Shown one piece after another: positions 8,342 to 32,533 of a stretch of DNA of 33,434 bases. The stretch is from Phycisphaerae bacterium (GTDB lineage Bacteria; Planctomycetota; Phycisphaerae; Phycisphaerales; SM1A02). The first letter of the stretch is position 1. Every line of letters starts with the position of its first letter. The notes below the pieces were generated by a model. That model worked only from the letters and a program-made list of their open reading frames with translations, made no database searches and had not been told where the DNA came from. Both the position numbers and the translations under genes were made by a program. Where the stretch lies: the NCBI GenBank assembly GCA_002709295.1, contig PAQL01000012.1, forward strand, positions 14,133 to 47,566. The letters run 5' to 3'.

Positions 8342-8347
8342 TACCCT
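8342..8347 (+). promoter_or_regulatory. -10 box (TACCCT) 7 bases before the NIF3 ATG: leaderless promoter
   Basis: TACCCT ends 7 bases before the ATG at 8355, so transcription would start at or next to the start codon. No Shine-Dalgarno sequence is present. The arrangement is repeated at four other genes in this window. Confidence 0.6.
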
Positions 8348-8354
8348 GTGCTGC

Positions 8355-9482
8355 ATGCCGGAAAGCAACACCGTCGCCTCGCTGGTCACCGCCATGAACG
8401 AGATCGCCCCTTCCGCGCTCGCGGAATCCTGGGACAACACCGGTCTCCTTCTCGGGCTCGAGAGCGATCCCATCCAACGCGTCCTCCTCTGCATCGATCT
8501 CGTCGACGGAGTCGTCGACGAGGCGCTCCGACGCGAGGTCGATGCGGTGGTCGCCTATCACCCTCCGATCTTCAGTCCTCTGAAGTCCCTCACCGGATCC
8601 GAGGCCGGAACCGCGAGGATCCTCACCCTTGCCCGGGCCGGCATCGCGGTCCACTCGCCGCACACCGCGGCGGATGCTGCGCCGGGAGGGGTCAACGACT
8701 GGCTTCTCGGTGTTCTCGGCGCCGGCGAGGGACGAGCGATCCAACCCGCCGCTCTTCTCCCCGCCTCGGAACGCCTCAAGATCGTCACCTTCACGCCCCA
8801 CGACTCCGTCACCGCGGTGCGCAACGCCCTCGCTCGCGCCGGTGCCGGCCGGATCGGCGACTACGACCACTGTGCCACGGAGATGGAGGTCACCGGAACG
8901 TTCCGCGGCGGCGAGGGAACGTCGCCCGAGATCGGGAAGGCGGGCCGGATCGAACGGGTGGAGGAAAGACGCCTCGAGGTCGTCTGCCACCCCTCGCGAC
9001 TCGCCGACGCCCTGGCCGCCCTCCAAGAGAGCCATCCCTACGAGGAACCGCCGATCGAGGTGCATGAACTCGAGCCACGTCCCTCCCGTGGAATCGGAGC
9101 CGGTCGCATCGGACGACTCGCTCCGGGAGCGACAACCCGGCAGCTCGTGGAACGCATGCGGAAGGGGATTCCTGCCGGCAGGTTCGCGATCCATGATGCA
9201 TCCCCTCGCCGGAGGCACGAACTCGTGGGACTCTGCGCCGGGAGCGGCGGAGAGCTTCTGGACGATTCGATCGCATCGGGTTGCACGGTCTTCGTGACCG
9301 GCGAGCTCAAGCATCACGACGTGCTCAGGGCCGCCTCGCAGGGATGCTCGGTGATTCTCGCCGGACACACCAACACCGAGCGTGGGTGGTTGAAGGTCCT
9401 GCAACGCCGTCTTCGCAAGTCGCTGCCCGATGTCGCCTTCGATCTCTCGAGAAGCGACCGGGATCCCCTCCAGCTCGCCTGA
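8355..9482 (+). CDS. NIF3/DUF34-family dinuclear metal-centre protein
   Basis: 375-residue NIF3-like protein (YqfO type) with the central insert domain typical of the longer members. Metal-binding motifs are visible: AYHPPIFSP, VHSPHTAADAAPGG near the N-terminal half, and TGELKHHDV plus GHTNTERGWL near the C-terminus. Proposed roles in the family include GTP cyclohydrolase I type 2 or a metal/nucleotide-related function, none settled. ATG 8355 is chosen over the upstream frame extension because it gives the family N-terminus (VASLVTAMNEIAP, ESWDNTGLL) and sits 7 bases after a TACCCT box. The stop codon directly abuts the stop of the convergent RND pump gene. Confidence 0.9.
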   Translation: MPESNTVASLVTAMNEIAPSALAESWDNTGLLLGLESDPIQRVLLCIDLVDGVVDEALRREVDAVVAYHPPIFSPLKSLTGSEAGTARILTLARAGIAVHSPHTAADAAPGGVNDWLLGVLGAGEGRAIQPAALLPASERLKIVTFTPHDSVTAVRNALARAGAGRIGDYDHCATEMEVTGTFRGGEGTSPEIGKAGRIERVEERRLEVVCHPSRLADALAALQESHPYEEPPIEVHELEPRPSRGIGAGRIGRLAPGATTRQLVERMRKGIPAGRFAIHDASPRRRHELVGLCAGSGGELLDDSIASGCTVFVTGELKHHDVLRAASQGCSVILAGHTNTERGWLKVLQRRLRKSLPDVAFDLSRSDRDPLQLA

Positions 9483-12400
9483 TCAGCCGGATCCGAGCCG
9501 GGCACGCCGCTCTTCGCGGCCCATCCCGAACCAGAGCCAGTGGATCGCACCGACCATGTCGTCGACGATGACGAGGATCGCGGGAAGCAGCAGCAGGGTG
9601 AGCACGGTGGCGCTGGCCAGTCCGCAGGTGATCGAGATCGCCATCGGCACCAGGAATCTCGCCTGGAAGCTCTGCTCGAGCATGAGCGGCGTGAGTCCGA
9701 GGATGGTCGTCGTGGTGGTGAGAACGATGGGACGAAGCCGCCGCTTGCCCGCTTCGACCAGCGCCTTCTCGAGGGGCATGCCCGCCGCCCGGTTGAGATT
9801 GAAGAACTCGACCAGGATCAGCGAGTTGTTGACCACCACTCCCGCAAGGGCCACCACCCCGATCAGACTCAGGAACGTGAGCTGATAGCCGAGCATCCAG
9901 TGACCCCACACCACGCCGATCAGTGAGAACGGAATCGCGAGCATGACCGCGAAGGGCTGGATGTAGCTGCCGAAGAGCCATGCCAGAATCACGTAGATCA
10001 TGATCGAGGCGGCTCCCATGGCGACCGGAAGCGAACTGAACGCGTCGTAGACGTCCTGCTGACGTCCCCCGGTCTTGATGACCACGCCGGGACTCGATTC
10101 CCTGAGTTCCTCGAGCTCGGGAGCCATCGCCGAGACCACGGACTCGGGGCTGGTGAAGGCATCCACCTCGGCGGTGATCGTGACCGCTCTCCTCCGGTCG
10201 ATCCGCCGGATCGCCGAACTCGATTCCGCCTCCTCGATCCTCGCGATCTCCTCGAGGGGGATCGCTCGTCCGTCCCGGGAGATGACCCACATCTCCTCGA
10301 TGCCGCCGACCGATCGGCGACTCTGCTCGTCGAACACGACCCGAACGTCGATGTCCTCCCGTTCCGCGCTGTACACGTGGGCCTCGAGTCCGTGAACCGC
10401 CCCCCGGACCTGGTTGGCGACCTCCCGCACGTCGATGCCCAGGGAGGCGGCGGAAGAGATGAGCGAGATCCTCAACTCCCGCTGCCCCGGTTCGTCGTCG
10501 TTGGAGATGTCGTAGACCCCCTCGTACCCCGCGAGGATGGCCTCGAGTCCGGCCACCGCGGTGTCGACTCGCTCCTCGTCCTCGCCGGTGACCTCGAAGG
10601 TGATCGCGGCTCCTCCCGGTCCGCCGTCGATCTCCCGCCAGGAGATCCGTTCGACCTCGGAGAGATCCCCGGTCGCTGCCCTGACCGCATCGATCACCTC
10701 GGGACTGGGGCGATCGCGTTCCTCGATCGGGGAGAGCTCGAAGAAGATCTGGGCGACCGAGGTCGTCGCGGGATCGGCCAGTCCGGTGTTGATGTCGAAG
10801 GTCTGTCCGACCGTGAGGCTTGTGTAGACCACTTCGGGCTGGGCCCGGGCCGCGTCCTCGATCCGACGGGCGACCGCCCGGGTCGATTCGAGTTCGGTGC
10901 CCGCAGGCATGCGGAGATCCACCACCACGTTCTCGGCATCGTCCACCGGGAGGAACACGAACTCCACCCTTCCTCCGAAGACCATCCCCAGGGATGACAC
11001 CAGCACCGCGATCGCGATCGACGTCGCGATCCAGCGGAAACGGACGCTCAGTGCGGCGACCCGGGCGTAGACGTTCACCAGACGGGCCACCACGTGCTCG
11101 TCCCGCCACGCGGCGAAGCGATCGGCGAAACCGAAGATTCCGCGACCACCACCACGACGGATCCCCTCCAGGGCATGCACCATGTGGGAAGGGAGGATCA
11201 GCATCGATTCGACCAGACTGATCAGCAGCGCACAGAAGACCACCGTGGGAAGCGCGCCGAGCAGCTTGCCCATGTTGCCCTTCAGGAATACCAGCGGCAG
11301 GAAGGCCACGATGGTCGTGAGCACCGTTCCGACCACCGGCCAGAAGACCTGCTCGCCACCCCGGGTGGCGGAGACCACCGGCTCCTCGTCGTCATGGTCG
11401 GCGCGTGCGGCGATGTTCTCCGCGACCACGATCGCATCATCGGTCAGCATGCCGAGGGTCACCAGCAGCCCGAACATGGTCAGCAGGTTCAACGTCACCC
11501 CGAGCGCATTCATGACCAGCAGGGTCCCGCAGATCGCGGTGAACAGGCCGATCATCACCCAGAACGCGACTCGCAGGTTGAGGACCAGCAGAAGCGCGAT
11601 GAAGACCAGGATCGCCCCCTGGAACGCGTTCCTCGACAGCAGCTCCAGTCGTCCCTGAATGAATCGGGACAGGTCGTTGTGCACCACGAGTTCGGCGGGA
11701 AGCGGCTCCGGGCATTCCAGTCCGATCCGATAGGCCTCCCACCGTTCGTCACCGAGCCATGACGACCAGATCGGTCCCGGAAAAGCATCGCCTCTCCGGC
11801 CCGCGGCATACGCATAGGCCATCGAGGCGATGTGGACCGCATCCTGACGACCGGTCTTGTAGATCGTGATGCTTCCCGCCGGGCGGCCCTCGAACCGCTC
11901 CTCGACCGGACGATCGACGAATCCGTCGCTCAGCCGAGCGAGATCCTGCACCCGGATCGACTGACCCCCGGGGAGGGCACGAACCACGATGTCCCCGATC
12001 GCATCCGCGCGCTCCTCGACGCCCATGGTCCGGATGCTGATGTTCCCGCCCCGGCTCCGGACCGTGCCGCTCGGAAGCTCGAGCATCCAGGCCCGCACCG
12101 CATCCGCGACCTCGGTGATCGGAATGCCGTACTCGACGAGACGATCGGGATCGACCTCGACCTGGATCTCGTAGTCGCGGAGACCGGAGATCTGGAGGGA
12201 TCCCATGCCCGCCAGCGATTCGAGGTCGTCGGCGATCCGGCGGAGCCCGCGCTTGAGGACCCGCTCCTCGACGTCTCCGAAGAGCGTGATGATGACCACC
12301 GGCAGATTGGGTTCGAACTCCAGAACCCGGATCTTCTCCGATTCATCCGGAAGGTCCGACAGACGTTCGAGGGCGCGTTCCACATCCTCGACCCCCTCCT

Positions 12401-12704
12401 CGACGTCGGTCCCCTCCTCGAACTTGACCACCACGACCCCGGTGCCCTCCATGACCGTGGTCTCGATCCTGCGGACCTCGTTCACGGTGCCGATGGCATC
12501 CTCGACCTTGCGAGCCATCGACTCCTCGAGTTCCTTCGGAGACGCGCCGGGATAGAGAAGTTCGACGCGGGCCGCCTCGGGGTCGATCTCGGGAAAGAAC
12601 TCCCTCCGCAGACTGAGTCCGGACCAGATGCCTCCGACGATGAGCACCATCATCAGGAGGTTGGCGGGAACCGGGTTCCTCGAACCGAAGGAGGGAAGAC
12701 TCAC
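9483..12704 (-). CDS. RND-family efflux pump, inner-membrane permease
   Basis: 1073-residue proton-driven RND transporter (AcrB-like, ACR_tran family) that would export small hydrophobic compounds across the envelope. It has the N-terminal SLPSFGSRNPVPANLLMMV segment, two large periplasmic loops and twelve expected membrane helices. The paired aspartates of helix 4 are present in GMLTDDAIVVAENI (about residue 422). In helix 10 the AcrB-type lysine position reads VNNSLILVEF, with asparagine. The start is GTG, overlapping the stop of the upstream fusion-protein gene (GTGA), with GGAGGAG 7 bases upstream. It forms an operon with that gene; no outer-membrane factor is in the window. Substrate unknown. 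Confidence 0.93.
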   Translation of the reverse strand: MSLPSFGSRNPVPANLLMMVLIVGGIWSGLSLRREFFPEIDPEAARVELLYPGASPKELEESMARKVEDAIGTVNEVRRIETTVMEGTGVVVVKFEEGTDVEEGVEDVERALERLSDLPDESEKIRVLEFEPNLPVVIITLFGDVEERVLKRGLRRIADDLESLAGMGSLQISGLRDYEIQVEVDPDRLVEYGIPITEVADAVRAWMLELPSGTVRSRGGNISIRTMGVEERADAIGDIVVRALPGGQSIRVQDLARLSDGFVDRPVEERFEGRPAGSITIYKTGRQDAVHIASMAYAYAAGRRGDAFPGPIWSSWLGDERWEAYRIGLECPEPLPAELVVHNDLSRFIQGRLELLSRNAFQGAILVFIALLLVLNLRVAFWVMIGLFTAICGTLLVMNALGVTLNLLTMFGLLVTLGMLTDDAIVVAENIAARADHDDEEPVVSATRGGEQVFWPVVGTVLTTIVAFLPLVFLKGNMGKLLGALPTVVFCALLISLVESMLILPSHMVHALEGIRRGGGRGIFGFADRFAAWRDEHVVARLVNVYARVAALSVRFRWIATSIAIAVLVSSLGMVFGGRVEFVFLPVDDAENVVVDLRMPAGTELESTRAVARRIEDAARAQPEVVYTSLTVGQTFDINTGLADPATTSVAQIFFELSPIEERDRPSPEVIDAVRAATGDLSEVERISWREIDGGPGGAAITFEVTGEDEERVDTAVAGLEAILAGYEGVYDISNDDEPGQRELRISLISSAASLGIDVREVANQVRGAVHGLEAHVYSAEREDIDVRVVFDEQSRRSVGGIEEMWVISRDGRAIPLEEIARIEEAESSSAIRRIDRRRAVTITAEVDAFTSPESVVSAMAPELEELRESSPGVVIKTGGRQQDVYDAFSSLPVAMGAASIMIYVILAWLFGSYIQPFAVMLAIPFSLIGVVWGHWMLGYQLTFLSLIGVVALAGVVVNNSLILVEFFNLNRAAGMPLEKALVEAGKRRLRPIVLTTTTTILGLTPLMLEQSFQARFLVPMAISITCGLASATVLTLLLLPAILVIVDDMVGAIHWLWFGMGREERRARLGSG

Positions 12705-14089
12705 GAATCGTCTCCTCCGGCCTCCGAACCGCTGGCGGAGATCGGGGCCCGCGGATCGACCGCCATGCCCGACTCGAACGAACGACCGCCGTCGACGACG
12801 AGCAGGTCACCTTCGGGAATCGGATTCTCGAGGACCAGCCACTGGGTGTCGGCGAGACCCGAAGCCGGTCTCTCCTCGTTCAGAGGGAAGAGGATGCTGA
12901 CCGGTTCGAATCGAATCCGTCCATCCTCCACCAGCATGACCTGCTGGTTCACGACCGAACGTCGCGGCACCACCGATCGGGCGACGGACTCCGACTCGAT
13001 CACCTCTCCATGCACGAAGAGTCCCGGGACCACCCGACCCCCGTCGGCATCGAGTTCGATGAAGACGGTCATGGTCCGACTGCCGGCATCGTCCTCGGGT
13101 GCGATGCGAGTGATGCTCGCGTGGATCGGTTCGTCGGTCACCGTGCGGTTGATGATCACCCGATCCCCCACCGCGACCCTGCCGCGGGCGGAGGCGGGAA
13201 TTCGAAGCGGCAGCTCGATCAGGGACGGATCGAAGACCCTGGCGATCGGAACCCCGGGACCGACCTGCTCGCCCACCTCCACCATGACCGCGGCCACCAC
13301 CCCGTCGAAAGGAGCCTTGATCAAACAGCGATCGACCTGGGACTCGGCCAGACGGCGTGCGCTGATCAGCTCGTCCTGCTGGGCGACGAGGGCACGCCGC
13401 CGAATGGGTAGCGTCGAGACCAGCTCCTCGATCGTGACCTGACCGCGTCGAGCGGTGAGAACCTGCTGCTCCGCGGTGTCGATCTCCCGCTGCACCGCGG
13501 CCCCGCGCCCCTGGGCGTCACGGACCCGGACCAGATCCTGCTCCGCCAGCTCGAGCGCCCGATTCGCGATCTCCAGACGGGCCCGGGACGTCTCGAGCTC
13601 GCTGTCGAGCCGGTCGATCTCCGCATCGATCTGGACGAGTCGTTCGGCCGCGGATTCCGCCTGTCGCTGATAGTCCTCCGGATCGAGCCGGACGATGACC
13701 TCCCCCTCCTTCACCGGCATGCCGACATCCAGACCCTCGTGAAGCGACTCCACGGTCGAGGCCACCCGGGAGGGGACCATCGAGGTCATGGATGGATGCA
13801 TGGTTCCGAAGCCCCGCCAGCGGCGGGCCACGGGCTCCGAGATCGGCTCGATCACGACCACCGGAGTGGCGATGTCGGATCGATCCACCCGGGCGGGAGT
13901 GGGCGCACTGACCGTCAAGGAGATCGCGATCCCCGCTCCGAGAGCCAGCACGAGGAGACAGACGATGCCGCGGAAGATGCCCGCCATCACGGGGTGAGCC
14001 CGTCCCACGCGTCCGGGGACGGGACCGGTGCCCGAAGCCTCCTCCACGGGAGACTCCATCGGCGGACTTTCATCATTGGGGCTGGACAT
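12701..14089 (-). CDS. RND efflux periplasmic adaptor (membrane fusion protein)
   Basis: 462-residue HlyD/AcrA-type adaptor linking an RND pump to an outer-membrane channel. After a soluble N-terminal stretch of about 40 residues there is one membrane anchor (GIVCLLVLALGAGIAIS). The lipoyl half-motif EGLDVGMPVKEGEVIVRLDP, a long coiled-coil hairpin (DAEIDRLDSELETSRARLEI and on), the second half-motif (IKAPFDGVVAAVMVEVGEQV) and beta-barrel domains follow. The frame is open farther upstream, but ATG 14089 is chosen because GGAG lies 6 bases before it and a TAGGAT box lies about 41 bases upstream. The pump gene overlaps its end by 4 bases. Confidence 0.9.
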   Translation of the reverse strand: MSSPNDESPPMESPVEEASGTGPVPGRVGRAHPVMAGIFRGIVCLLVLALGAGIAISLTVSAPTPARVDRSDIATPVVVIEPISEPVARRWRGFGTMHPSMTSMVPSRVASTVESLHEGLDVGMPVKEGEVIVRLDPEDYQRQAESAAERLVQIDAEIDRLDSELETSRARLEIANRALELAEQDLVRVRDAQGRGAAVQREIDTAEQQVLTARRGQVTIEELVSTLPIRRRALVAQQDELISARRLAESQVDRCLIKAPFDGVVAAVMVEVGEQVGPGVPIARVFDPSLIELPLRIPASARGRVAVGDRVIINRTVTDEPIHASITRIAPEDDAGSRTMTVFIELDADGGRVVPGLFVHGEVIESESVARSVVPRRSVVNQQVMLVEDGRIRFEPVSILFPLNEERPASGLADTQWLVLENPIPEGDLLVVDGGRSFESGMAVDPRAPISASGSEAGGDDS

Positions 14090-14130
14090 CGAAGGCTCCG
14101 GAGCCTGCTGGACCTGGACAGAGAGAGGGA

Positions 14131-14136
14131 ATCCTA
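14131..14136 (-). promoter_or_regulatory. Probable -10 box for the efflux operon (TAGGAT)
   Basis: TAGGAT on the minus strand, giving a transcript start near 14124 and a leader of about 35 bases that keeps the Shine-Dalgarno GGAG. It is divergent from the gatC promoter box, 35 bases away. No -35 consensus is visible. No operator for a TetR- or MarR-type regulator stands out. Confidence 0.5.
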
Positions 14137-14171
14137 CCTTGGACGATCCCGACACCCGGGCCGCCACCCGG

Positions 14172-14177
14172 TAGGCT
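14172..14177 (+). promoter_or_regulatory. -10 box (TAGGCT) 7 bases before the gatC ATG: leaderless promoter
   Basis: TAGGCT ends 7 bases before the ATG at 14185. A CCGACA 17 bases upstream (14149-14154) matches four of six positions of TTGACA. There is no Shine-Dalgarno sequence between box and start. The same spacing is found at the NIF3, 16.9-kb lipoprotein and DUF1573 genes. Confidence 0.6.
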
Positions 14178-14184
14178 TCGCTCC

Positions 14185-14517
14185 ATGACCTCAAGCGATT
14201 CGCAACCCACCGATCCCGGAGGACCTTCGATCGAGGAGATCGCCCGGACCGCCACCCTCGCGAGGCTGGCCCTCGACCAGGAGGGGCTGGAGGCCGCCCG
14301 GACGGACCTCACCGCGATCCTCGAGCACGTGGCCCTGCTCTCCTCCCTCGACGTGGAGGGCGTCGAGCCGATGCCCCGTCCCCACGACATCGTCAACCGC
14401 CTTGCCGATGACGTTCCCGGACCGGTGCTCGATCGATCCGTGATCCTCTCGCTCGCTCCGGCCGTCGAGGGCGATTTCATCGCCGTTCCCAAGGTTCTTG
14501 GCGAAGGCGGAGCCTGA
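14185..14517 (+). CDS. gatC: Asp-tRNA(Asn)/Glu-tRNA(Gln) amidotransferase subunit C
   Basis: 110-residue GatC, the small subunit that holds GatA and GatB together in the enzyme that amidates mischarged Glu-tRNA(Gln) or Asp-tRNA(Asn). Family features are IEEIARTATLARLALD, ILEHVALLSSLDVEGVEPM and the C-terminal VEGDFIAVPKVL. It has an N-terminal extension of about 14 Ser/Pro-rich residues. It is followed by gatA after 12 bases; gatB is not in the window. The ATG is 7 bases downstream of a TAGGCT box, suggesting a leaderless mRNA. Confidence 0.95.
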   Translation: MTSSDSQPTDPGGPSIEEIARTATLARLALDQEGLEAARTDLTAILEHVALLSSLDVEGVEPMPRPHDIVNRLADDVPGPVLDRSVILSLAPAVEGDFIAVPKVLGEGGA

Positions 14518-14529
14518 ATCGAACCCGGC

Positions 14530-15999
14530 ATGAAGATGACCGACTCCAAACCCGATTCCTCGAACGACCTCCTCGCCCGCGTCGACGACTTCAAGTCCGG
14601 CCGGATCTCGGCGACGGAAAGGGTGGAGAACGCCCTCTCCACGATCGCCGGGCTCGATCCGACGATCAACGCCTTCCACGACCTTCTGGCCGAAGAGGCG
14701 CGATCCACGGCGAAGGAACTCGATGCGACCCGGGAACGTGGAGATGATCTCGGCCCGCTGGCGGGATCGATCATCGCGATCAAGGACAACATCTGCATGA
14801 ACGTGGGGCGGACGACCTGCAGTTCACGGATGCTCGAGGAATACCGATCCCCCTTCGATGCGACGGTGATCGAACGACTTCGCGCCGCGGGAGCGATCCT
14901 GCTGGGCAAGACCAACCTCGACGAGTTCGCCATGGGTTCCTCGAGCGAACATTGTGCCTGGGGCCCGGTCCGCAATCCGCATGCGACCGATCGGGTTCCC
15001 GGCGGATCCAGCGGAGGAAGCGCCGCGGCCGTGGCCGCCGACTGCGTGGATGCCGCCCTGGGCAGCGACACCGGCGGGTCCATTCGACAACCGGCCGCGT
15101 TCTGTGGAACCGTGGGCTTCAAGCCGACCTACGGCCGGGTCTCCCGCCACGGCCTCGTCGCGTTCGGCTCGAGCCTCGACCAGATCGGACCCCTCTCCCG
15201 CAGCGTGCGTGATGCGGCCGCGATCTACGAGGCGATCGCCGGCCTCGATCCGGCGGATTCGACCACCTCGGATCTCGAGGTGGCGAACTGCCTCGCCTCC
15301 GGACCCGCGGATCCCGCCCGACTCCGCGTCGGGATCCCGAGAGAGCATCGAAACGACCGCAACCACGCCGGCGTGAACGAGGTGCTGGATCATGCCGTGG
15401 ACCGGCTTCGCGCCGCGGGAGCGACGATCGTCGATGTCGATCTCCCCCTCACCCGGCAGGGCGTCTCCACCTACTACGTGATCGCTCCCGCCGAGGCCAG
15501 CAGCAACCTGACCCGTTTCGACGGCATTCGATACGGCCACCGCGCGGAGTCCGTGCCGGGCGAGGGACTGGAGGATCTCTACGCACGAACGCGGACCGAG
15601 GGATTCGGCGACGAGGTCCGTCGGCGGATCCTCCTCGGCACCTACGTGCTGAGCGCCGGCTACTACGACGCGTACTACAAGCGGGCACTCCAGGTGAGGC
15701 GTCTGATCAAGCAGGAGTACGACTCGGCCTTCGAACAGTGCGACGTCCTGCTCGGCCCGACCACCCCCACTCCCGCCTTCCCAATCGGCGCCGATCTCGA
15801 CCCGGTCTCGATGTATCTCAACGACGTCTACACCGTGAACTCCAACATCGCCGGGATCCCCGCCCTTTCGATTCCCGCGGGACTGGTCGATGAGGATGGA
15901 GAGAAGCTTCCCGTCGGCGTGCACCTTCAGGCCCCGGCCTTCGCGGAAGCGGATCTTCTCGCTGCCGCAGCCGCTCTGGAGTCACTCCTCGCCGACTGA
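14530..15999 (+). CDS. gatA: Asp-tRNA(Asn)/Glu-tRNA(Gln) amidotransferase subunit A
   Basis: GatA is the glutaminase subunit that releases ammonia for tRNA-dependent amidation. It has 489 residues, the usual size, with an intact amidase-signature Ser-cisSer-Lys triad: K85 in IAIKDN, S160 in PGGSSGGSAA and S184 in DTGGSIRQPAA. Spacings between the three equal those known from characterised GatA. The C-terminal NIAGIPALSIPAG and GVHLQAPAF segments are present. A second in-frame ATG lies at 14536. No clear Shine-Dalgarno is seen, so translation may be coupled to gatC. Its 3' end overlaps the convergent lipoprotein gene by 18 bases. Confidence 0.96.
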   Translation: MKMTDSKPDSSNDLLARVDDFKSGRISATERVENALSTIAGLDPTINAFHDLLAEEARSTAKELDATRERGDDLGPLAGSIIAIKDNICMNVGRTTCSSRMLEEYRSPFDATVIERLRAAGAILLGKTNLDEFAMGSSSEHCAWGPVRNPHATDRVPGGSSGGSAAAVAADCVDAALGSDTGGSIRQPAAFCGTVGFKPTYGRVSRHGLVAFGSSLDQIGPLSRSVRDAAAIYEAIAGLDPADSTTSDLEVANCLASGPADPARLRVGIPREHRNDRNHAGVNEVLDHAVDRLRAAGATIVDVDLPLTRQGVSTYYVIAPAEASSNLTRFDGIRYGHRAESVPGEGLEDLYARTRTEGFGDEVRRRILLGTYVLSAGYYDAYYKRALQVRRLIKQEYDSAFEQCDVLLGPTTPTPAFPIGADLDPVSMYLNDVYTVNSNIAGIPALSIPAGLVDEDGEKLPVGVHLQAPAFAEADLLAAAAALESLLAD

Positions 16000-16944
16000 T
16001 GCCCGGTCCGGCCCGGGGTTCTTCACGATCCCGGAAGCGGGCATCTGCGGTGCCGGTACCCGTCCCCATGCCTCCAACGACCTTCGAAAGGCGGCTTCGA
16101 GCTCCTTCGTCCTAAGGTCGTTCTCGAACAGCCCCGCCTCGGCACGGATCGAGAGGATCCGCGGCTCGGGTTCACGAAGAACCGTGAGAGTCGCCTGCTC
16201 CTCGTCGAGCATCAACAGGACGAACCGGTACTGCTCGGGTTCGGTCCCGGACGAGAGGACCCGGCCACCCCTGGAACGGACCGAGGCGCGGATGATCGCT
16301 TCGGCGGAGCGGCCCGAGATCGTCGGACCAGCCTCGGTCGTCGCCACCTGCATGCGATCCTCGAGATCGATGAGCTGATTCGATCGTTCCCGCGCCGCAT
16401 CGGTGCCGGGCACCCGATACTCGACCGAGGCGATCGGACCTCGCTCCCGCAACCGGATCGTGGCGACCGCGCGACGGCCTCGACTGTCGAGATAGGTGAC
16501 CGACGCCTTCTCGGGGTCGTGATGGGACTCGAGGATGGCCATCTCCACACTGGGAGCGGCGATGATCATCGCCTGCGGTGAATCCTCGAATCGGACCCCG
16601 TGTCGAGCCGGCGCCATGGGAAGGACGGGACCCGCGACCGCATCCCTCAGAATGCCCCGAACCTCGGCCCGCTGGGACTCGTCGAGCACGATGGAGGCCC
16701 ACCGATCGTCGAGCGTGCCAGCCTGATGGTCGTAGACCTCGTTGCTGGCCGCGGCCGGCGTGGGCGGGGGAGAAGTCTCGCACCCGGTGACCGGGACGCC
16801 CATCGCCATGATCAGCCATCCCCGACCGAGTCGGTGAAAACGGCCCCGGGATCGAGGATCCCGGGCAACGAGTTCGATGCCACGCCCGGCTTCCGCAGCC
16901 GGTGCGGAGCCCCGAGAAGGGCCTTGGGGGTCGAGAAGTCCCAT
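15982..16944 (-). CDS. Lipoprotein of unknown function
   Basis: 320-residue product; I do not recognise a family. It has an Arg-rich N-terminal region (about 40 residues), a short hydrophobic stretch and a lipobox PVTGC with the cysteine at residue 55, then a Pro/Ala linker and a mixed alpha/beta region. The reading frame stays open 240 bases upstream, but ATG 16944 is chosen because a TAGGAT box lies exactly 7 bases before it, the leaderless arrangement seen at other genes here. A start at an internal ATG just before the lipobox would leave a very short signal. It converges on gatA with an 18-base overlap and diverges from pgpH. Confidence 0.7.
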   Translation of the reverse strand: MGLLDPQGPSRGSAPAAEAGRGIELVARDPRSRGRFHRLGRGWLIMAMGVPVTGCETSPPPTPAAASNEVYDHQAGTLDDRWASIVLDESQRAEVRGILRDAVAGPVLPMAPARHGVRFEDSPQAMIIAAPSVEMAILESHHDPEKASVTYLDSRGRRAVATIRLRERGPIASVEYRVPGTDAARERSNQLIDLEDRMQVATTEAGPTISGRSAEAIIRASVRSRGGRVLSSGTEPEQYRFVLLMLDEEQATLTVLREPEPRILSIRAEAGLFENDLRTKELEAAFRRSLEAWGRVPAPQMPASGIVKNPGPDRASVGEE

Positions 16945-16951
16945 GAAAGGC

Positions 16952-16957
16952 ATCCTA
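16952..16957 (-). promoter_or_regulatory. -10 box (TAGGAT) 7 bases before the lipoprotein ATG: leaderless promoter
   Basis: TAGGAT on the minus strand ends 7 bases before the ATG at 16944. It is divergent from the TACAGT box of pgpH, 71 bases away. No -35 consensus at normal spacing is visible. Confidence 0.55.
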
Positions 16958-23247: not shown

Positions 23248-23253
23248 GACCGC

Positions 23254-23968: not shown

Positions 23969-23981
23969 ACGGGAAGTCGGC

Positions 23982-26211: not shown

Positions 26212-27098
26212 CCGTGGACCTCGACGGATGCCAGGGGGACGGCGTCGAACACCGCCGATTCCACGGTGGGGGCCGGAATCCCCAGATCGATGGGCAGCAC
26301 CATGGCCTGATCATGATCGGAGTTGAGAAGGATCGTGCGGGGCCCTCCGATGCCGATGCCGCTTTCGACATAGGCATGGCCGAGACAGAACAACGAGATC
26401 CCCCACTCCTCGGCGAGCATCTCCACCTGCGACTCGGCGTGGCCACGACCCCAGACCATCATCCAGGCGCTCCCCTCCATGGGGGCGTAGTCGTCTGCCT
26501 CCAGCTCGCGGTCGAGGATCCCGGTATCGAATCGATCCATCATCATCGGACCGGGCAGGGAATGGGAACAGAGCACCCCGTTCTCGGTTCGCGCCGCGAG
26601 AGGAAGGGCACGAACGAACTCGCCGATCGCGGAGGCGACGAGATCCGCCTCCTCCTCGAAGACCGCACGAAGCCCCAGGTCGAAGAGGGTGGTCATGCAG
26701 CCTCCACCCTTCGAGACCGAGTGACCCTCCATCTGGGCGAGTTCATGATTGGCGAGCAGGACATGGACCCGGCCGGGATGCTCGAGGACCAGGCTGGCGA
26801 CCTTGACCAGCATTCGATAGCTGAGATCGAGACCCTGCTGGAGACGTTCGCCATGGATCAGCTCGTGGAGAACGATGTGGGCATCCGTTTCCCGAGCGAT
26901 CCTCGAGCATCGAACGACCTTCGAGAGGTTCGTGGGATTGTCGTGAAGATCCCCGGTGAAGAGCAACGATCCACGTCCATCGATCATGGACACCGAGCCC
27001 CGGCGATTCGGTGCCTCGCGCATGGCTGCCGCGGCCGCCGAGAGGCGATCCACCACGGCGACGGCATCCTGATCGTCGATGGGACGGACCTTCGTCAA
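26208..27098 (-). CDS. Metallophosphatase (calcineurin-like phosphoesterase)
   Basis: 296 residues with the binuclear-metal phosphoesterase motifs LLFTGDLHDNPTNL (about residue 46), LANHELAQMEG and the C-terminal CLGHAYVESG with a further histidine in LNSDHDQAM. Substrate is unknown; the layout is that of Ser/Thr-phosphatase-like or nucleotide-cleaving enzymes. It sits between the DUF1573 lipoprotein gene and tsaB with 4-base overlaps at both ends. The TTG at 27098 overlaps the upstream stop as TTGA, so translation is probably coupled. Start is uncertain because a later in-frame ATG (residue 27) also exists. Confidence 0.85.
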   Translation of the reverse strand: MTKVRPIDDQDAVAVVDRLSAAAAAMREAPNRRGSVSMIDGRGSLLFTGDLHDNPTNLSKVVRCSRIARETDAHIVLHELIHGERLQQGLDLSYRMLVKVASLVLEHPGRVHVLLANHELAQMEGHSVSKGGGCMTTLFDLGLRAVFEEEADLVASAIGEFVRALPLAARTENGVLCSHSLPGPMMMDRFDTGILDRELEADDYAPMEGSAWMMVWGRGHAESQVEMLAEEWGISLFCLGHAYVESGIGIGGPRTILLNSDHDQAMVLPIDLGIPAPTVESAVFDAVPLASVEVHG

Positions 27099-28267
27099 GG
27101 ATCGACCCTCGCGGCAACCTCCAGCACTCCTGTACCGGTGTCGGTGGAGACCTGGATTCCGGCGTAGAGAAGGAGTTCCGCCGGCCCGTTGAACCGGATC
27201 CGAATCACCGCATCGAGCTGCTCGGAGGACGCGACGTTCGAGGACATCAGCGTGGCCTCGATCCGGGGATCGAGACTTCGCACCGAGAGCCCCTTCGACC
27301 AGTCCGGTCGATCGATCGCGCCACGCCCTCTGGGGTTGTAGTGATCGAGCTGGATCGGGACATCCACCTCCGAACCGATGCCGACCGAGCCAAGCTCCGC
27401 GAAATCATCGAGGATGATCCATCGGCGTTCGAATCGGGTGGGATCCCGGCGAGAACCGGTCTCGGGATGACGGACACGACACGCCACCAGAGGACAGTCC
27501 ATCCGGTCCGTCGTGAAGACCCACCACCTTGGAATCGTCTGAGGAGCGATCCCGGCGACCGACCAACCGAGCTCGTATGAGCTTCGGGGGTCGTCTCCGG
27601 ACTGGAATGCGACGAAGGATGGTGCGCTTCCATTGGAAGCCAGCACCCGGAACGGCCTTCCATCGATCGATGACAGTCGGATGGTCCCGTTCTCGACTCC
27701 CTGAAGTGCCGACGCGAAGGCGGGAACAGGTTGCACCGGAAGGGTGACCATGCCGTTCAACTTCACGACCGCAGGCTGCTGCATGCCCTCGAGCTGGACG
27801 AAGACCTTCGCCTCCTTCTCCCCCGCCTGCTTCGGGGCATCGAGAGAAGCCTCGAGCGACACCGTCTCACCAGGCTGGATCACCTTTCCCGCGAGGTCCG
27901 AGAGCGTGGTGCAGACACAGCTCGGCGTCACGCGAAGCACCCGGACCGGCTGCCCGCCGCGGTTGGTGAGCTTGAAGGCACCCCGGTTGATCGTGCCGGG
28001 GCCGACGGCACCGAAGTCGATGAGCTCCGGAACGATGTCGAAGGCTCCCGCCGCGGTCTGGACCTGGATCGAGCCCTTCATCACCGAGGAGCCGAGGGGC
28101 GGTGACGGCATCGCATCCGAACCGTAGGTCGAACCCTCCGTTCGAACCGCTTCTTTCGAGGGAGCCGATGGAGCGTCGGCATCACTGCCACCACAGCCGG
28201 AAGCGATCGCGATCACGATCGAGGACAGGATCCACACGGAGAGTTCGGCAGAGCGGGATGGCATCAT
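27095..28267 (-). CDS. DUF1573-domain lipoprotein
   Basis: 390 residues. A signal peptide ends in a lipobox (IAIASGC, cysteine at residue 25), then a Ser/Pro linker, then a DUF1573 domain (IDFGAVGPGTINRGAFKLTN, VLRVTPSCVCTTLSD, IQPGETVSLEASLD), a beta-sandwich common in Bacteroidetes and planctomycetes. A second region of about 200 residues follows with no family I can name. Probably attached to the membrane on the periplasmic side; role unknown. A TAGACT box lies exactly 7 bases before the ATG, so the operon with the metallophosphatase and tsaB appears to have a leaderless transcript. A second ATG follows directly. Confidence 0.88.
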   Translation of the reverse strand: MMPSRSAELSVWILSSIVIAIASGCGGSDADAPSAPSKEAVRTEGSTYGSDAMPSPPLGSSVMKGSIQVQTAAGAFDIVPELIDFGAVGPGTINRGAFKLTNRGGQPVRVLRVTPSCVCTTLSDLAGKVIQPGETVSLEASLDAPKQAGEKEAKVFVQLEGMQQPAVVKLNGMVTLPVQPVPAFASALQGVENGTIRLSSIDGRPFRVLASNGSAPSFVAFQSGDDPRSSYELGWSVAGIAPQTIPRWWVFTTDRMDCPLVACRVRHPETGSRRDPTRFERRWIILDDFAELGSVGIGSEVDVPIQLDHYNPRGRGAIDRPDWSKGLSVRSLDPRIEATLMSSNVASSEQLDAVIRIRFNGPAELLLYAGIQVSTDTGTGVLEVAARVDP

Positions 28268-28274
28268 GAATCAC

Positions 28275-28280
28275 AGTCTA
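28275..28280 (-). promoter_or_regulatory. -10 box (TAGACT) 7 bases before the DUF1573 ATG: leaderless promoter
   Basis: TAGACT on the minus strand ends 7 bases before the ATG at 28267. It drives the DUF1573-metallophosphatase-tsaB operon. No -35 consensus is visible. Confidence 0.6.
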
Positions 28281-28329
28281 GTGAACACCGGTACGGACAC
28301 GCTTCGGAACGCCTTTTCTCGAATGACGA

Positions 28330-28390
28330 CGCGAGCCCGGTCATGACGACCGGGCTCGCGGAAAATCCTGGGTCCGGCTTCGAGCCGGCC
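28330..28390 (-). terminator. Terminator region after the sugar dehydrogenase gene
   Basis: Two hairpins follow the stop codon at 28399. The first (28371-28390) has a CCGGCT/AGCCGG core and is followed on the minus strand by CAGGATTTTC. The second is a perfect 13-bp stem, 28330-28342 with 28348-28360 (loop ATGAC), the longest in the region. Together they should end transcription ahead of the DUF1573 promoter. Confidence 0.7.
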
Positions 28391-28398
28391 GTCTTCGA

Positions 28399-30183
28399 TC
28401 AGCCGCCGCAGGCACCCCAGGCGGCGAGGATCAGACCGAGGTCGCTGCCACCGATGCCGTCGCCGTTGCCATCGACGTCGTAGGCGTCGGTGCCCCAGGC
28501 GGCGAGCAGGAGGCCGAGGTCCGCACCACTGACGATGTCGTCACCGTTGAGGTCCTCGGGGCAGGGATCATCGAGGGGATCGAAGGTGATGTTCAGGAGA
28601 CCTTCGCCCTGGTCGTTGTCCTGGGACGAACCGACCCGGATCACCACCGTCTGGCCGGCGAAGGCCAGCGTCGAAATGCTGGCGTCATCACCGCATTCGT
28701 CGTCGCCACAGGCGATGACCGAGGACGAACCGTTGGGGCACGACTGGTTGTAGATGGCGATCCGACTGTTGAAGCTGCTGTTGCAGGTGTCGATGTCGAG
28801 GAAGCCGTTCGCGGGAGCGACGAATGTGAACCAGACGTCGGAGTAGACATCGGGACCGCTGGTCGAGCTGCAGCTGATCGGCACTCCGAAACCGGAATCC
28901 GAGGCCTCGACCGTGGTGAACGGGGTGGTTCCCGCGGACACCGCGATCGCACCGGCACAGTCGTCGTTGGCCGGGGGCGGATCGCAGCTTTCGGAACCGT
29001 CCTCGGGGACGATCTTGAAGATGCGACCGGACTGCGACACGATGTAGATCTCGCCGCGGGCATCCTCGCCGAAGCTGGCGACCTGGTTGACCGCCACTCC
29101 GGTGGTGGAGGTTCGAAGGTCGCTGTTCCGGCTCTGGACCGACACGTTTCCGTTCTTCTGGGGCACCGCGCTCCAGAAGTTGGAAAGGACGTAGTCGGCG
29201 TAGAAGTAGGTGCCCTGAAGCTCGGGAATCGCACATCCACGATAGGGGTAGCCACCGGTGATCGAGTAGCCGCCACTGGAGTTGTGGTTGTAGACGATCT
29301 GCGGGTCGAAGAACGGACCGCTGGATCCGCAGGAGCTCGAGTAGGTGCTCAGACCCTCCTTGCACTTCCAGCCGAAGTTGGCACCCGAGAGCTCGTCGGG
29401 CCTGACGTAGTTGACCTCTTCACGAGCGTTCTGACCGACATCCGCGATCCAGAGGTCGCCGGTCAGCCGGTCGAAGGCGCAACGCCAGGGGTTTCGCAGC
29501 CCGTAGGCGTAGATCTCGTCGTCACCGCTCGTACTCACGAAGGGGTTGTCGGCCGGCACCGAATAGGGCGTTCCGTTGTCGATGTCGATGCGGAGGATCT
29601 TGCCCAGCCGCTGATTGGTGATGTCCTGGCCCCGGTTGCCGGGGTCACCGCCGGATCCACCGTCACCCGTGAAGATGTAGAGATAGCCGTCGGGGCCGAA
29701 CTCGATGAAGCCACCGTTGTGGTTCGTGTACGGCTGGTCGAACGACATGATCGTCAACGCACCCGCGGTGGTGGCGTGGTCGGCGTCGGCACCACGGTTG
29801 TAGCGGCGGATGTAGCTGTCGCCGTTGCCCGCCGTCGCGGTGTAGTAGACGTAGAAGTACCCGTTGTTCTGGTAGTCGGGGTGGAACGCCAGTCCGAGGA
29901 GACCACGTTCGTCACTGGTCGAGTTTCCGCCGGTGACCAACGAATCGATGTTGAGGAAGTAGTCGCTGTTCAGCGTCTCGGTGTCGAGGTTCAGGATTCG
30001 AATGCGACCCTGCTTCTCGATGATGAAGAGGCGACTCTCGTCCCCGGGAGCATGCGTCGCATAGATGGGACGCGACAGTCCGGAGACCACGAGGCGGCTC
30101 GCGATGTCCTGAGCAGGCGCCAGAGCAGCGAGGAACGAGGCCGCCACGGCGGCGAGAACGAGGGAGCTACGGCGAATCGACAT
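28399..30183 (-). CDS. Secreted PQQ-type sugar dehydrogenase with C-terminal dockerin
   Basis: 594 residues. A signal peptide (SLVLAAVAASFLAALAPAQ) leads a six-bladed beta-propeller of the soluble glucose/aldose dehydrogenase family: FIIEKQGRIRIL, GLLGLAFHPDY, LYIFTGDGGSGGDPGN, GLRNPWRCAFD and WIADVGQN. A second domain begins NDDCAGAIAV (about residue 405) and a dockerin-type pair of EF-hand loops (DLNGDDIVSG, DVDGNGDGIGG, each followed by LAAWG) ends the protein. The frame is open upstream, but ATG 30183 is chosen for the signal peptide and the GGAAG just before it. Sugar oxidation outside the cell is inferred; cofactor and substrate are not provable here. Confidence 0.9.
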   Translation of the reverse strand: MSIRRSSLVLAAVAASFLAALAPAQDIASRLVVSGLSRPIYATHAPGDESRLFIIEKQGRIRILNLDTETLNSDYFLNIDSLVTGGNSTSDERGLLGLAFHPDYQNNGYFYVYYTATAGNGDSYIRRYNRGADADHATTAGALTIMSFDQPYTNHNGGFIEFGPDGYLYIFTGDGGSGGDPGNRGQDITNQRLGKILRIDIDNGTPYSVPADNPFVSTSGDDEIYAYGLRNPWRCAFDRLTGDLWIADVGQNAREEVNYVRPDELSGANFGWKCKEGLSTYSSSCGSSGPFFDPQIVYNHNSSGGYSITGGYPYRGCAIPELQGTYFYADYVLSNFWSAVPQKNGNVSVQSRNSDLRTSTTGVAVNQVASFGEDARGEIYIVSQSGRIFKIVPEDGSESCDPPPANDDCAGAIAVSAGTTPFTTVEASDSGFGVPISCSSTSGPDVYSDVWFTFVAPANGFLDIDTCNSSFNSRIAIYNQSCPNGSSSVIACGDDECGDDASISTLAFAGQTVVIRVGSSQDNDQGEGLLNITFDPLDDPCPEDLNGDDIVSGADLGLLLAAWGTDAYDVDGNGDGIGGSDLGLILAAWGACGG

Positions 30184-30303
30184 CGAGCTTCCGATCTTCA
30201 AAGGGTGCGAGAGGACGGCTGGATCCGGAGCCGACCCATCAGGAAGACGCATCGGGGTGGCGTTGGTTCCCCGAACGGCGGTGAAGTCCTCACCGACCCA
30301 GTA

Positions 30304-30309
30304 AAGATA
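30304..30309 (-). promoter_or_regulatory. Possible -10 box for the sugar dehydrogenase gene (TATCTT)
   Basis: TATCTT on the minus strand lies about 120 bases before the ATG. No clear -35 is visible. The long leader has no obvious riboswitch fold. Confidence 0.35.
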
Positions 30310-30418
30310 GCACCGGTGCGGCGGGGAACCGCTGAAGACGGTGGAAACAGCCGTTTCAATTCTGAAATGAGGCTTGGAGACGCCCCCCACCCCAACAGAA
30401 CGTCGGAAAACCCCGATC

Positions 30419-32521
30419 TCAGGGCGCTATCCGGTCAGCAGCCTCGCGGACCGTGATCATCAATGTCCGATATCTCAAGACGGCCTCATCGAGCGCCTCC
30501 TGATCACCATCTCGAATGGCCTCGGAGAATCTCGGCAGGACCACCGATCCGTAACCACTGTCCCGATCGCTGGCCGCGAACTCGTTCCGAAACCAGGGCC
30601 GACCGGGAAGGCCCTCTTCACCGATCCAGGCCCGATCGAAGTCGATCAACGCCTGAACCGTCCGATCGTCCTCCTCCGCCTCCTCGAGTCGACGGGCCGC
30701 CGATTCGCACGCCTGAAGAGTCTGCTCGACCTCCGCCCGAAGCGCAACGAGATCGATCGAGAGTCCGGCATCCTCCGCCGCCGTCTCGTAGGCCTTCAAC
30801 CGACGCTCCAGTCCGGCGACTGCCGGCACCGGATCGATGGGCGGCAACGGGGAATCGGCGAGATCCGCCACCAGGGCCGCGGTGATCCTCGACAACATCG
30901 TCGCTCCGACATAGTCCTCACCGACCGTCGCCCGATACCAGGCGAGGGTGTCGTAGTTCGAGTGGTGGACGCTGCCCTGACTCCCTCTCGCGGAGAGTGC
31001 CACCGAAGGCACCCCGACATGACAGAGGAATCCGATGTGATCGCTTCCACCCCCGAGATCACCGACGGGTGGCGTGTCACGATCACCCTGCCACGCCTCG
31101 AGGACGGATCCCTCCCCACCGGGCTGCGGAACGTCCTCGGTGGCTCGAACGATCGACCTGATCAGGGACGGGGTCGCGGATGATCCGAATCGAGTGCCCA
31201 TCGCCGCCATGTCGAGATTCACGTAGGCGACCGCGTCACGGCGGATGCGATCGGCTTCGGCCTCCACCCATTCGCAGGAACCGATGATGCCGAATTCCTC
31301 GGCTCCCCAGGCCGCGAAGACGATCGACCGTCGCGGTCGAAGTCCGCGATCAGCGGCTTCCGCGAAGACCTTCGCCGTCTCCAGCAGCACGATCATCCCG
31401 GCCAGGGGGTCGGCCGCGCCGAAGCCCCACGCATCATGGTGACAGCCCACGACCACCATCTCGTCGGGGCGCTCGGATCCCGGAAGCACGCCGAACACGT
31501 TCGCGGTCCTCATCAGTTCACGCACCTGGGAGACTTCGAGTCGAAGCTCCAGATCCCCGCCCTCCACGCGGTAGGGAACCTTCATCCCCCCCGTCCAGCC
31601 CTCGAGCCCCATCATCTCGACGGTCGGACCCTTCATCGCGGCCATGATCCGACTGGCCGCGGCGTAGCCGATCGGCTGGACCGGAATTCGCGGCAGCGCC
31701 ACCTCGTCGGGGTCGAGGCGGGCCACATCACCCCGAGCCGGCACGAACGGCGTCAACGGATCGCCCTTCCAGGGAAGGGTGACGATGGATCCCCGCTGGA
31801 TGCAGGTCTCGTTCGCCCAGCCGCCCTGCGGCCAGGTCGGACCTCGCCCCTCGCCGTAGTCGCCGGGATCGAGGAAGATCACGAGTCCCGCCGCCCCCGC
31901 CTCCTCCGCGAACTTCACCTTGAAACCACGGTAGTTCCCACCGTATCGGGCAAGCACGATCTTGCCGGTGCAGTCCACACCAAGCTCGCGAAGTCGCTGG
32001 AAGTCCTCCGGTCGACCGCGATTGGCATAGACCACCCCGGCTTCGACCATTCCCGAACCCGAATAGGCGTTCCAACCCCAGCGCAGATCGGGATGGTAGG
32101 TCGCGGGATCCTCGAGCAGTTCACGCTCGCTGATCGGCAACGACGTGACACCACGGCGAGCTCGTCCTTCCACCGCAGTCGGATCGGGGGCCGAGTCCCC
32201 CACGATGCTCAGGCTGGCGGAGACCGGTCTGGCGAGGAACGGTTCGAACCACCAGACCTTCGTCTCCAGTCCCATGCCTTCGAAGGCTCCGGCGATCGAA
32301 TCGATGACGATTCGATCACCCTCCGTGCCGGCGACGTGGGGTCGGGATCCCAGGAGATCATGCCAGTCGGACAGCCGTTCCGAGCGGGGTGCGCCAAGGA
32401 CATCGGCACGAAGATCCCCCGGCCCCTCGGCGAGAGACGATGACGAGGCACAGACCGACAGGGCTGCGACGAGGGCCGTCGATCGGGCGATAGCGGAGAC
32501 GATCTTCTTTCGGTTGATCAT
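30419..32521 (-). CDS. Glutamate-carboxypeptidase-II-like M28 peptidase
   Basis: 700-residue secreted metallopeptidase of the M28B type (GCPII/transferrin-receptor fold). A signal peptide (about residues 1-31) is followed by a protease-associated domain and the zinc peptidase domain, then a helical dimerisation-like C-terminus. Two-zinc ligands can be placed by analogy: H in CHHDAW, D in AADPLAG, EE in WGAEEFG, D in NLDMAAMG, and H in HHSNYDT. The segments match GCPII closely (AEEFGIIGSCEWVE). It may trim peptides or N-terminal/C-terminal glutamates outside the cytoplasm. A TAGGCT box lies 6 bases before the ATG; nagZ lies 28 bases upstream on the same strand. Confidence 0.92.
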   Translation of the reverse strand: MINRKKIVSAIARSTALVAALSVCASSSSLAEGPGDLRADVLGAPRSERLSDWHDLLGSRPHVAGTEGDRIVIDSIAGAFEGMGLETKVWWFEPFLARPVSASLSIVGDSAPDPTAVEGRARRGVTSLPISERELLEDPATYHPDLRWGWNAYSGSGMVEAGVVYANRGRPEDFQRLRELGVDCTGKIVLARYGGNYRGFKVKFAEEAGAAGLVIFLDPGDYGEGRGPTWPQGGWANETCIQRGSIVTLPWKGDPLTPFVPARGDVARLDPDEVALPRIPVQPIGYAAASRIMAAMKGPTVEMMGLEGWTGGMKVPYRVEGGDLELRLEVSQVRELMRTANVFGVLPGSERPDEMVVVGCHHDAWGFGAADPLAGMIVLLETAKVFAEAADRGLRPRRSIVFAAWGAEEFGIIGSCEWVEAEADRIRRDAVAYVNLDMAAMGTRFGSSATPSLIRSIVRATEDVPQPGGEGSVLEAWQGDRDTPPVGDLGGGSDHIGFLCHVGVPSVALSARGSQGSVHHSNYDTLAWYRATVGEDYVGATMLSRITAALVADLADSPLPPIDPVPAVAGLERRLKAYETAAEDAGLSIDLVALRAEVEQTLQACESAARRLEEAEEDDRTVQALIDFDRAWIGEEGLPGRPWFRNEFAASDRDSGYGSVVLPRFSEAIRDGDQEALDEAVLRYRTLMITVREAADRIAP

Positions 32522-32527
32522 GTCCGA

Positions 32528-32533
32528 AGCCTA
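32528..32533 (-). promoter_or_regulatory. -10 box (TAGGCT) 6 bases before the M28 peptidase ATG: leaderless promoter
   Basis: TAGGCT on the minus strand ends 6 bases before the ATG at 32521. It lies in the 28-base gap after nagZ, so the peptidase gene seems to have its own leaderless transcript in addition to any readthrough. Confidence 0.55.

What the first reader, a model, noticed from the sequence alone, without database searches (positions are those of the whole stretch)
8342..32533. Recurring TAnnnT-N6/7-ATG arrangement suggests widespread leaderless transcription
Five genes have a TAnnnT hexamer 6 or 7 bases before the ATG and no Shine-Dalgarno in between: NIF3 (TACCCT 8342-8347, ATG 8355), gatC (TAGGCT 14172-14177, ATG 14185), the unknown lipoprotein (TAGGAT 16952-16957 minus, ATG 16944), the DUF1573 gene (TAGACT 28275-28280 minus, ATG 28267) and the M28 peptidase (TAGGCT 32528-32533 minus, ATG 32521). 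By rough base-composition reasoning in DNA this GC-rich, such a hexamer at two fixed spacings should occur at about one percent of starts or fewer, against 5 of about 26 visible starts. This mirrors leaderless promoters of Actinobacteria and Deinococcus (established knowledge). Other genes carry like boxes (TACACT, TAGCCT, TACAGT, TATATT) at leadered distances.
Basis: partly seen in the sequence, partly recalled or inferred. Interest (0 to 1): 0.65.

Follow-up and report, generated by a model that had tools for sequence, protein, structure and literature searches.

The report
Promoters abutting start codons in Phycisphaerales
In this uncultured planctomycete about one gene in ten has its promoter box so close to the start codon that the message probably begins at the start codon itself, a known mode of gene expression for which no earlier report in this order of bacteria turned up.

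Summary
In a motif-blind sample of a third of the genome, 74 of 876 starts have TAnnnT at gap 6 or 7; shuffles of the first 588 gave a mean of 5.6 against 52. Whole-genome counts are 401 at gap 6/7 against 108 at a frame-matched gap. These starts almost lack Shine-Dalgarno sequences (3 of 74, against 358 of 876 overall), favour genes transcribed away from their upstream neighbour (43 of 272), and show a weak -35-like signal. At gatC the box stands at gaps 5-9 in 24 of 30 Phycisphaerales loci, own included, and at gap 6/7 in 5 of 8 named genomes, but at 0 of 35 relatives' starts of window genes that lack it. The excess appears in 19 of 19 genomes of the order tested, 0 of 9 from other orders of its class, and patchily elsewhere. 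Best reading: sigma-70-type -10 boxes of leaderless mRNAs, a known kind in a new lineage. The lipoprotein start is doubtful and the M28 site not conserved. No transcript ends exist.

The parts
8342..8347 (+). TACCCT, putative -10 box 7 nt before the NIF3 start codon
   Evidence: gap-6/7 box at the nearest start in 9 of 30 NIF3 loci of the order, own included, and gap 7 in Phycisphaera sp. TMED9 (L051)
8355..9482 (+). DUF34/NIF3 family gene, probably leaderless
   Evidence: Pfam PF01784 E 2e-61; start matched from residue 1 in L051
14172..14177 (+). TAGGCT, putative -10 box 7 nt before the gatC start codon; the best-conserved site
   Evidence: TAnnnT at gaps 5-9 in 24 of 30 gatC loci, gap 6/7 in 16 of 30, own included; 5 of 8 named genomes
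14185..14517 (+). gatC (Asp/Glu-tRNA amidotransferase subunit C), first gene of gatCA, probably leaderless
   Evidence: Pfam PF02686 E 8e-15
14530..15999 (+). gatA, second gene of the operon; no TAnnnT box at its start (internal control)
   Evidence: 0 of 10 orthologue starts in named genomes carry the motif at gap 6/7
16952..16957 (-). TAGGAT 7 nt before an ATG at 16944; doubtful as a promoter of the lipoprotein gene because that start leaves a very long stretch before the lipobox
   Evidence: gene finder chose 16809
15982..16944 (-). lipoprotein-like gene without Pfam match; true start uncertain
28275..28280 (-). TAGACT, putative -10 box 7 nt before the DUF1573 start codon
   Evidence: start supported by a lipoprotein-like signal read by eye; the only relative tested (39% identical, L054) lacks the box
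27095..28267 (-). DUF1573 lipoprotein gene, probably leaderless
   Evidence: Pfam PF07610 E 3.4e-13
32528..32533 (-). TAGGCT, putative -10 box 6 nt before the M28 peptidase start codon; not conserved in relatives
   Evidence: 2 of 24 M28 loci, own included
30419..32521 (-). M28 family peptidase with Sec-type signal peptide (by eye), probably leaderless in this genome
   Evidence: Pfam PF04389 E 2.4e-23

Best explanation
The hexamers are -10 elements of housekeeping (sigma-70-type) promoters placed directly against the coding sequence. RNA polymerase starts at, or within a base or two of, the A of ATG, so the mRNA has no 5' leader and no Shine-Dalgarno; the ribosome presumably engages the 5'-terminal AUG directly. 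About one gene in ten of this Phycisphaerales genome, mainly genes transcribed away from their upstream neighbour, is expressed this way; SD-led initiation continues for many others. Shown here: the positional enrichment, absence of SD, gene context, sigma-70 geometry and conservation. Inferred: that the box is a promoter, the exact start of transcription, and leaderless translation.
For: Enrichment confined to gaps 6-10 with the peak at 6, the usual spacing between a -10 box and the transcription start (spacing rule recalled; 74 of 876 starts at gap 6/7). Whole-genome frame-matched count 401 against 108, while three named outgroup genomes give 1584/1589, 3050/3030 and 5523/5739. SD-like word in 3 of 74 motif starts against 358 of 876 starts. 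Divergent context 43 of 272, same-strand neighbour within 25 nt 6 of 179. -35-like match at spacer 17 in 8 of 52 against 1.4 expected, and best match at spacers 15-20 above all 2000 control draws; in the second sample the same measure is reached by 54 of 2000 draws, and at spacers 16-18 by 16 of 2000. Footprint: gatC box at gaps 5-9 in 24 of 30 loci, at none of gaps 0-4 or 10-19, while the 40 bases before the box average 30% pairwise identity, maximum 47.5%; relatives' starts of window genes without the box lack it at gap 6/7 in 35 of 35. One-letter variants of T1, A2, T6 among 447 starts with neither signal show no clear excess. The same box at 6-7 bp was shown by experiment to drive leaderless genes in Deinococcus radiodurans (PMC12340547, sections 7 and 11 and passages read).
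Against: No transcript 5' ends exist here. The -35 signal is weak: in the second sample spacer 17 alone gave 1 of 22 against 0.4 expected, and TTG itself is not enriched (4 against 2.7 shuffled). Some variants lean upwards (GAnnnT 22 against 13-15 at three control gaps, TGnnnT 13 against 6-9), so the box may be less strict than T1-A2-T6. The M28 site is not conserved (2 of 24 loci with the own one), the one DUF1573 relative lacks the box, and the lipoprotein start is doubtful. 6 of 179 closely spaced same-strand starts also carry the motif, so some may be chance or internal promoters. ATG use is only mildly raised (88% against 83% of SD-led starts).
Confidence: 0.88

Rival explanations
1. The boxes are -10 elements, but transcription starts a few bases away, giving very short leaders (1-5 nt) or starts inside the codon; functionally near-leaderless rather than strictly leaderless.
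For: Gaps 8, 9 and 10 are also raised (13, 7 and 4 of 876 starts, against a mean of 2.9 per offset at gaps 15-60); gatC loci use gaps 5, 8 and 9 in 8 of 30.
Against: Gap 6 is the mode (51 of 876) and gaps 0-5 are nearly empty (4 in all), which places the start codon at the usual start of transcription.
Confidence: 0.09
2. TAnnnT near the start codon is a translation-initiation or start-context signal (for instance an S1-binding A/T-rich patch or an in-frame stop codon before the start), not a promoter.
For: It replaces the SD (3 of 74 motif starts have one); a one-genome Planctomycetes sample in PMC5397173 (passages read) was described as leaderless and/or S1 bias.
Against: The middle bases of the box and the bases around it are mostly G or C, so there is no A/T-rich patch; a weak -35-like signal lies upstream; the motif favours divergent genes (43 of 272) over closely spaced same-strand ones (6 of 179); about half of the 52 boxes are TAC or TAT, not stop codons, and gap 7 is out of frame.
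Confidence: 0.02
3. Chance hexamers in a region picked by eye.
For: The five sites were chosen after reading the window; the M28 site is not conserved.
Against: Excluding the window and contig C13, 71 of 840 starts still carry it; frame-matched genome counts 401 against 108; 19 of 19 genomes of the order tested show the excess.
Confidence: 0.01

Closest known systems
TANNNT '-10-motif' leaderless genes of Deinococcus-Thermus (Zhong et al. 2025, PMC12340547; outline, passages and sections 7 and 11 read)
   Same: Hexamer TANNNT about 6-7 bp before the ORF with T1, A2, T6 nearly invariant, most often TACACT (also the commonest of the 24 gatC boxes here, 5 of 24), beside a GGAG ribosome-binding motif.
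   Different: About 30% of ORFs there, about 10% here; promoter function shown by reporters and RNA-seq there, inferred here; a different phylum. Its domain-wide survey figure (S7) could not be seen, so whether it covers this phylum is unknown to me.
TA-led leaderless genes of Actinobacteria and other bacteria (Zheng et al. 2011, PMC3160421; section 7 and passages read)
   Same: TAnnnT with uninformative middle bases in high-GC genomes, about 10-12 bp before the start, coexisting with SD-led genes.
   Different: The groups it lists with leaderless genes (207 of 953 genomes) do not include Planctomycetes, and the word does not occur in its main text; its supplements were not seen.
Leaderless transcriptome of Mycobacterium tuberculosis (PMC3898074; passages read)
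   Same: TANNNT -10 without a conserved -35; start of transcription on the start codon.
   Different: Mapped experimentally, about a quarter of genes with a primary start site; here about a tenth of genes, unmapped, with a weak -35-like signal.

Membership tests
Bacterial leaderless (TA-led) genes | TANNNT about 10-12 bp before the start codon in more genes than shuffled sequence gives | tested here: met
   52 of 588 against a shuffle mean of 5.6 (single-base shuffles, not dinucleotide ones); 22 of 288 in a second sample; 401 against 108 genome-wide
Bacterial leaderless (TA-led) genes | No Shine-Dalgarno between box and start codon | tested here: met
   SD-like word in 3 of 74 motif starts against 358 of 876 starts
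Bacterial leaderless (TA-led) genes | Found at first genes of transcription units | tested here: met
   Divergent 43 of 272; same strand within 25 nt 6 of 179; gatC 5 of 8 and gatA 0 of 10 in named relatives
Bacterial leaderless (TA-led) genes | Primary transcript 5' end at the start codon | not testable with these tools
   No transcript data held
Bacterial leaderless (TA-led) genes | Translation from a 5'-terminal AUG or GUG | not testable with these tools
   Needs reporter or ribosome profiling
Sigma-70-type promoter | -10 hexamer with T1, A2, T6 | tested here: met
   TAnnnT sharply enriched; one-letter variants among 447 other starts show no clear excess, though GAnnnT (22 against 13-15) and TGnnnT (13 against 6-9) lean upwards
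Sigma-70-type promoter | -35 element about 17 bp upstream | tested here: inconclusive
   First sample: 0 of 2000 control draws reach it; second sample: 54 of 2000 at spacers 15-20, 16 of 2000 at 16-18 (range set after the first sample), 1 of 22 against 0.4 at spacer 17 alone
Shine-Dalgarno-led genes | GGAG-like sequence 4-17 nt before the start | tested here: not met
   3 of 74 motif starts; the anti-SD CCTCC itself is intact in the 16S

The most novel reading that the evidence does not exclude
Leaderless expression is an old trait of the order Phycisphaerales and a patchy one across Planctomycetota, and at particular genes, gatC above all, selection has kept the promoter box locked to the start codon while the sequence before it turned over to chance-level similarity; that would mean leaderless initiation has gene-specific value there (for example control of the supply of amidated tRNA under stress) and is not only tolerated.
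Probability: 0.35. Interest if true: 0.55.

Novelty: new member of a known kind. Interest (0 to 1): 0.42.

Why it matters
It extends leaderless expression, best documented in Actinobacteria and Deinococcus-Thermus, to a planctomycete order with an intact anti-Shine-Dalgarno; it offers a motif for correcting start codons in GC-rich Phycisphaerales genomes (here the DUF1573 start); and it gives gatC as one named gene at which leaderless initiation can be tested in a cultured member.

Tried and rejected
Gene finder: my own codon-usage finder is motif-blind but chooses starts imperfectly (28081 for DUF1573, 16809 for the lipoprotein). It failed on two small or high-GC samples of relatives (G184: 0 of 9 starts ATG; G109: 10 of 52), whose start-based results I discard. 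Starts within 60-100 nt of a stretch end were dropped, and the part of L014 that overlaps the window was cut.

Reversed-pattern control of the tool (own genome 401 against 275): rejected as a yardstick because its codon-frame background differs; replaced by the same pattern 12 bases further out.

Signal by genome: the 66 genomes are the 28 of the class (19 of the order, 9 of other orders, all that one search drew) and 38 others that I picked after seeing their counts, so 21 of 38 positive outside the class is not a prevalence. In low-GC genomes the background is up to thousands of matches, so a modest number of leaderless genes would be missed.

-35 element: TTG alone at spacers 15-20 was 4 against 2.7 shuffled, so there is no classical TTG.

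First gatC footprint script ignored that minus-strand loci are not turned; redone.

M28 footprint: six weak domain-only loci (L272-L277) dropped; 2 of 24 remain with the box, own included. Footprint loci were the best places only: 30 of 53 gatC places and 30 of 63 NIF3 places. In one search, 6 rows without a usable start for window genes without the motif, and 1 for the lipoprotein, were left out.

Base before ATG: C in 61% of SD-led and 74% of motif starts against 35% before any ATG; a general feature of starts here, not specific to leaderless genes.
Full report
What was claimed and whether it is there. The five hexamers are at the stated coordinates, 7, 7, 7, 7 and 6 bases before ATG. The window is G000:C12:14133-47566 of a 3.68 Mb, 43-contig genome; its GatA is closest among the named records returned to Phycisphaera sp. 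TMED9 (71%) and other Phycisphaerae.

Is it more than chance? With a motif-blind gene finder, 52 of 588 starts in 828 kb have TAnnnT at gap 6 or 7; shuffling the upstream 30 nt gives a mean of 5.6, maximum 13 in 300 shuffles. A second 400 kb gives 22 of 288. Pooled, gap 6 has 51, gap 7 23, gap 8 13, gap 9 7, gap 10 4, while gaps 0-5 have 4 in all and gaps 11-13 have 1; without the window and the odd contig C13 it is 71 of 840. Allowing other in-frame starts near the chosen one, 105 of 907 genes carry the motif against 11 at a control gap. In the whole genome TANNNTN{6,7}ATG occurs 401 times and TANNNTN{18,19}ATG, which keeps codon phase, 108 times; with GTG 153 and 103. The excess of about 340 sites is some 10-13% of genes if gene density in the sample holds for the genome. 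The window's 5 of 27 is ordinary for this genome (P = 0.14).

What it is. Motif starts lack SD-like words (3 of 74, against 358 of 876 overall; the control offset of the first sample gave 98 of 588) although the 16S anti-SD is intact. They sit at genes transcribed away from their upstream neighbour (43 of 272) far more than behind a close same-strand neighbour (6 of 179). Among 447 starts with neither signal, variants with one fixed base changed show no clear excess at gap 6/7; the largest leanings are GAnnnT, 22 against 13-15 at three control gaps, and TGnnnT, 13 against 6-9. A weak -35-like signal stands upstream: 8 of 52 have at least 4 of 6 matches to TTGACA at spacer 17 against 1.4 expected, and the best match at spacers 15-20 exceeds all 2000 control draws. 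In the second sample 54 of 2000 draws reach the value at spacers 15-20 and 16 of 2000 at spacers 16-18, but spacer 17 alone gives 1 of 22 against 0.4. Gap 6 puts the A of ATG where a -10 box normally places the first transcribed base (spacing rule recalled). These features fit a promoter better than a ribosome-binding signal.

Footprints. In 30 gatC loci of the order, own included, the nearest ATG carries TAnnnT at gap 6/7 in 16 and at gaps 5-9 in 24, with none at gaps 0-4 or 10-19. The 40 bases before the box in those 24 average 30% pairwise identity, maximum 47.5%, and no column reaches 70%, while T1, A2 and T6 are fixed by selection of the rows. In named records gatC has the gap-6/7 box in 5 of 8, its operon partner gatA in 0 of 10, and all window genes without the box, gatA included, in 0 of 35. 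NIF3 has it in 9 of 30 loci, own included; in family f5 the six loci show GGAG-like sequences near GTG or ATG starts instead (read by eye; the automatic count, which prefers ATG, scores only 1 of those 6 as SD). So the same gene appears to switch between SD-led and leaderless. M28 has it in 2 of 24 with the own copy, so this site is recent or accidental; the single DUF1573 relative and the single lipoprotein relative with a usable start lack it. DUF1573 and M28 starts are supported by signal peptides read by eye; the lipoprotein start is not.

Distribution. With the frame-matched control, 19 of 19 genomes of the order have an excess (z above 4; ratios from 1.25 in an f4 member and 1.27 in the f5 member to 7.3 in family f1), 0 of 9 from other orders of the class, and 21 of 38 hand-picked genomes elsewhere in the phylum. 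Named genomes: TMED9 389/123, Plancto1 316/107, Ja1_bin-1028 401/74, ZRK34 1367/990, a Pirellulales MAG 864/862; outgroups Thermogemmatispora 1584/1589, Planococcus 3050/3030, Halanaerobacter 5523/5739; in all 8 of 13 named genomes have z above 4. Start-based samples agree: families f1-f4 of the order 20 of 268 starts, f5 1 of 56, other orders of the class 2 of 78, f29 0 of 53, f67 1 of 40, f47 0 of 46, f35 4 of 60 (two failed genomes left out). Low-GC genomes give little power.

What is known. Zheng et al. 2011 found TANNNT-led leaderless genes in 207 of 953 bacterial genomes; Planctomycetes are not in the list of groups. A 2017 comparison with one planctomycete speaks of 'leaderless mRNA and/or RPS1'. 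Zhong et al. 2025 show by experiment the same box at 6-7 bp in Deinococcus; their domain-wide figure I could not see. Searches for leaderless with Planctomycetes (11 papers), Planctomycetota (2) and Phycisphaer (1), and for start-site mapping with planctomycete names (best 15 and 12 listed of 408 and 241), showed, from the listings and from passages of PMC5397173 and PMC10783764, no report of leaderless promoters in this order; the other listed papers were not opened and the library is open-access only. The mechanism is known; the lineage and the gatC footprint appear new.

Noticed in passing
G000:C13 (L015; gatC/gatA-like stretch at G000:C13:6816-7492): The first 20 kb of contig C13 have G+C 0.563, below every other own stretch sampled (0.60 or more), and the contig carries a second gatC/gatA (gatC 48% identical); estimated contamination of the assembly is 4%, so this contig may be foreign.
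   Followed up: partly
L054 (CAMBUI010000059.1): A MAG labelled Candidatus Kuenenia stuttgartiensis has a GatA 66% identical to the window's and the same leaderless signature (281 against 43); probably mislabelled.
   Followed up: no
starts sampled in the window, L003-L042 and L281-L300: The base before the start codon is C in 61% of SD-led and 74% of motif starts against 35% before any ATG.
   Followed up: partly
L053 and L054, gene divergent from gatC: The orthologue of the window gene at 12701-14059 has TATACT 11 and 13 nt before its ATG, so the short gap between the two divergent genes may hold two promoters with very short or no leaders.
   Followed up: no
L232-L236, L247 (NIF3 in family f5): The six f5 NIF3 loci fetched show GGAG-like sequences near GTG or ATG starts where many loci of other families have the TAnnnT box (by eye), suggesting an exchange of initiation mode at one gene.
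   Followed up: partly
window 16809-16944, minus strand: The lipoprotein gene has several possible starts; its lipobox cysteine is residue 55 counted from the ATG at 16944.
   Followed up: partly
G000:C32:54923-55780 and G000:C5:65111-65752: The 16S rRNA gene is split between two contigs, the C5 part lying at the contig end.
   Followed up: no
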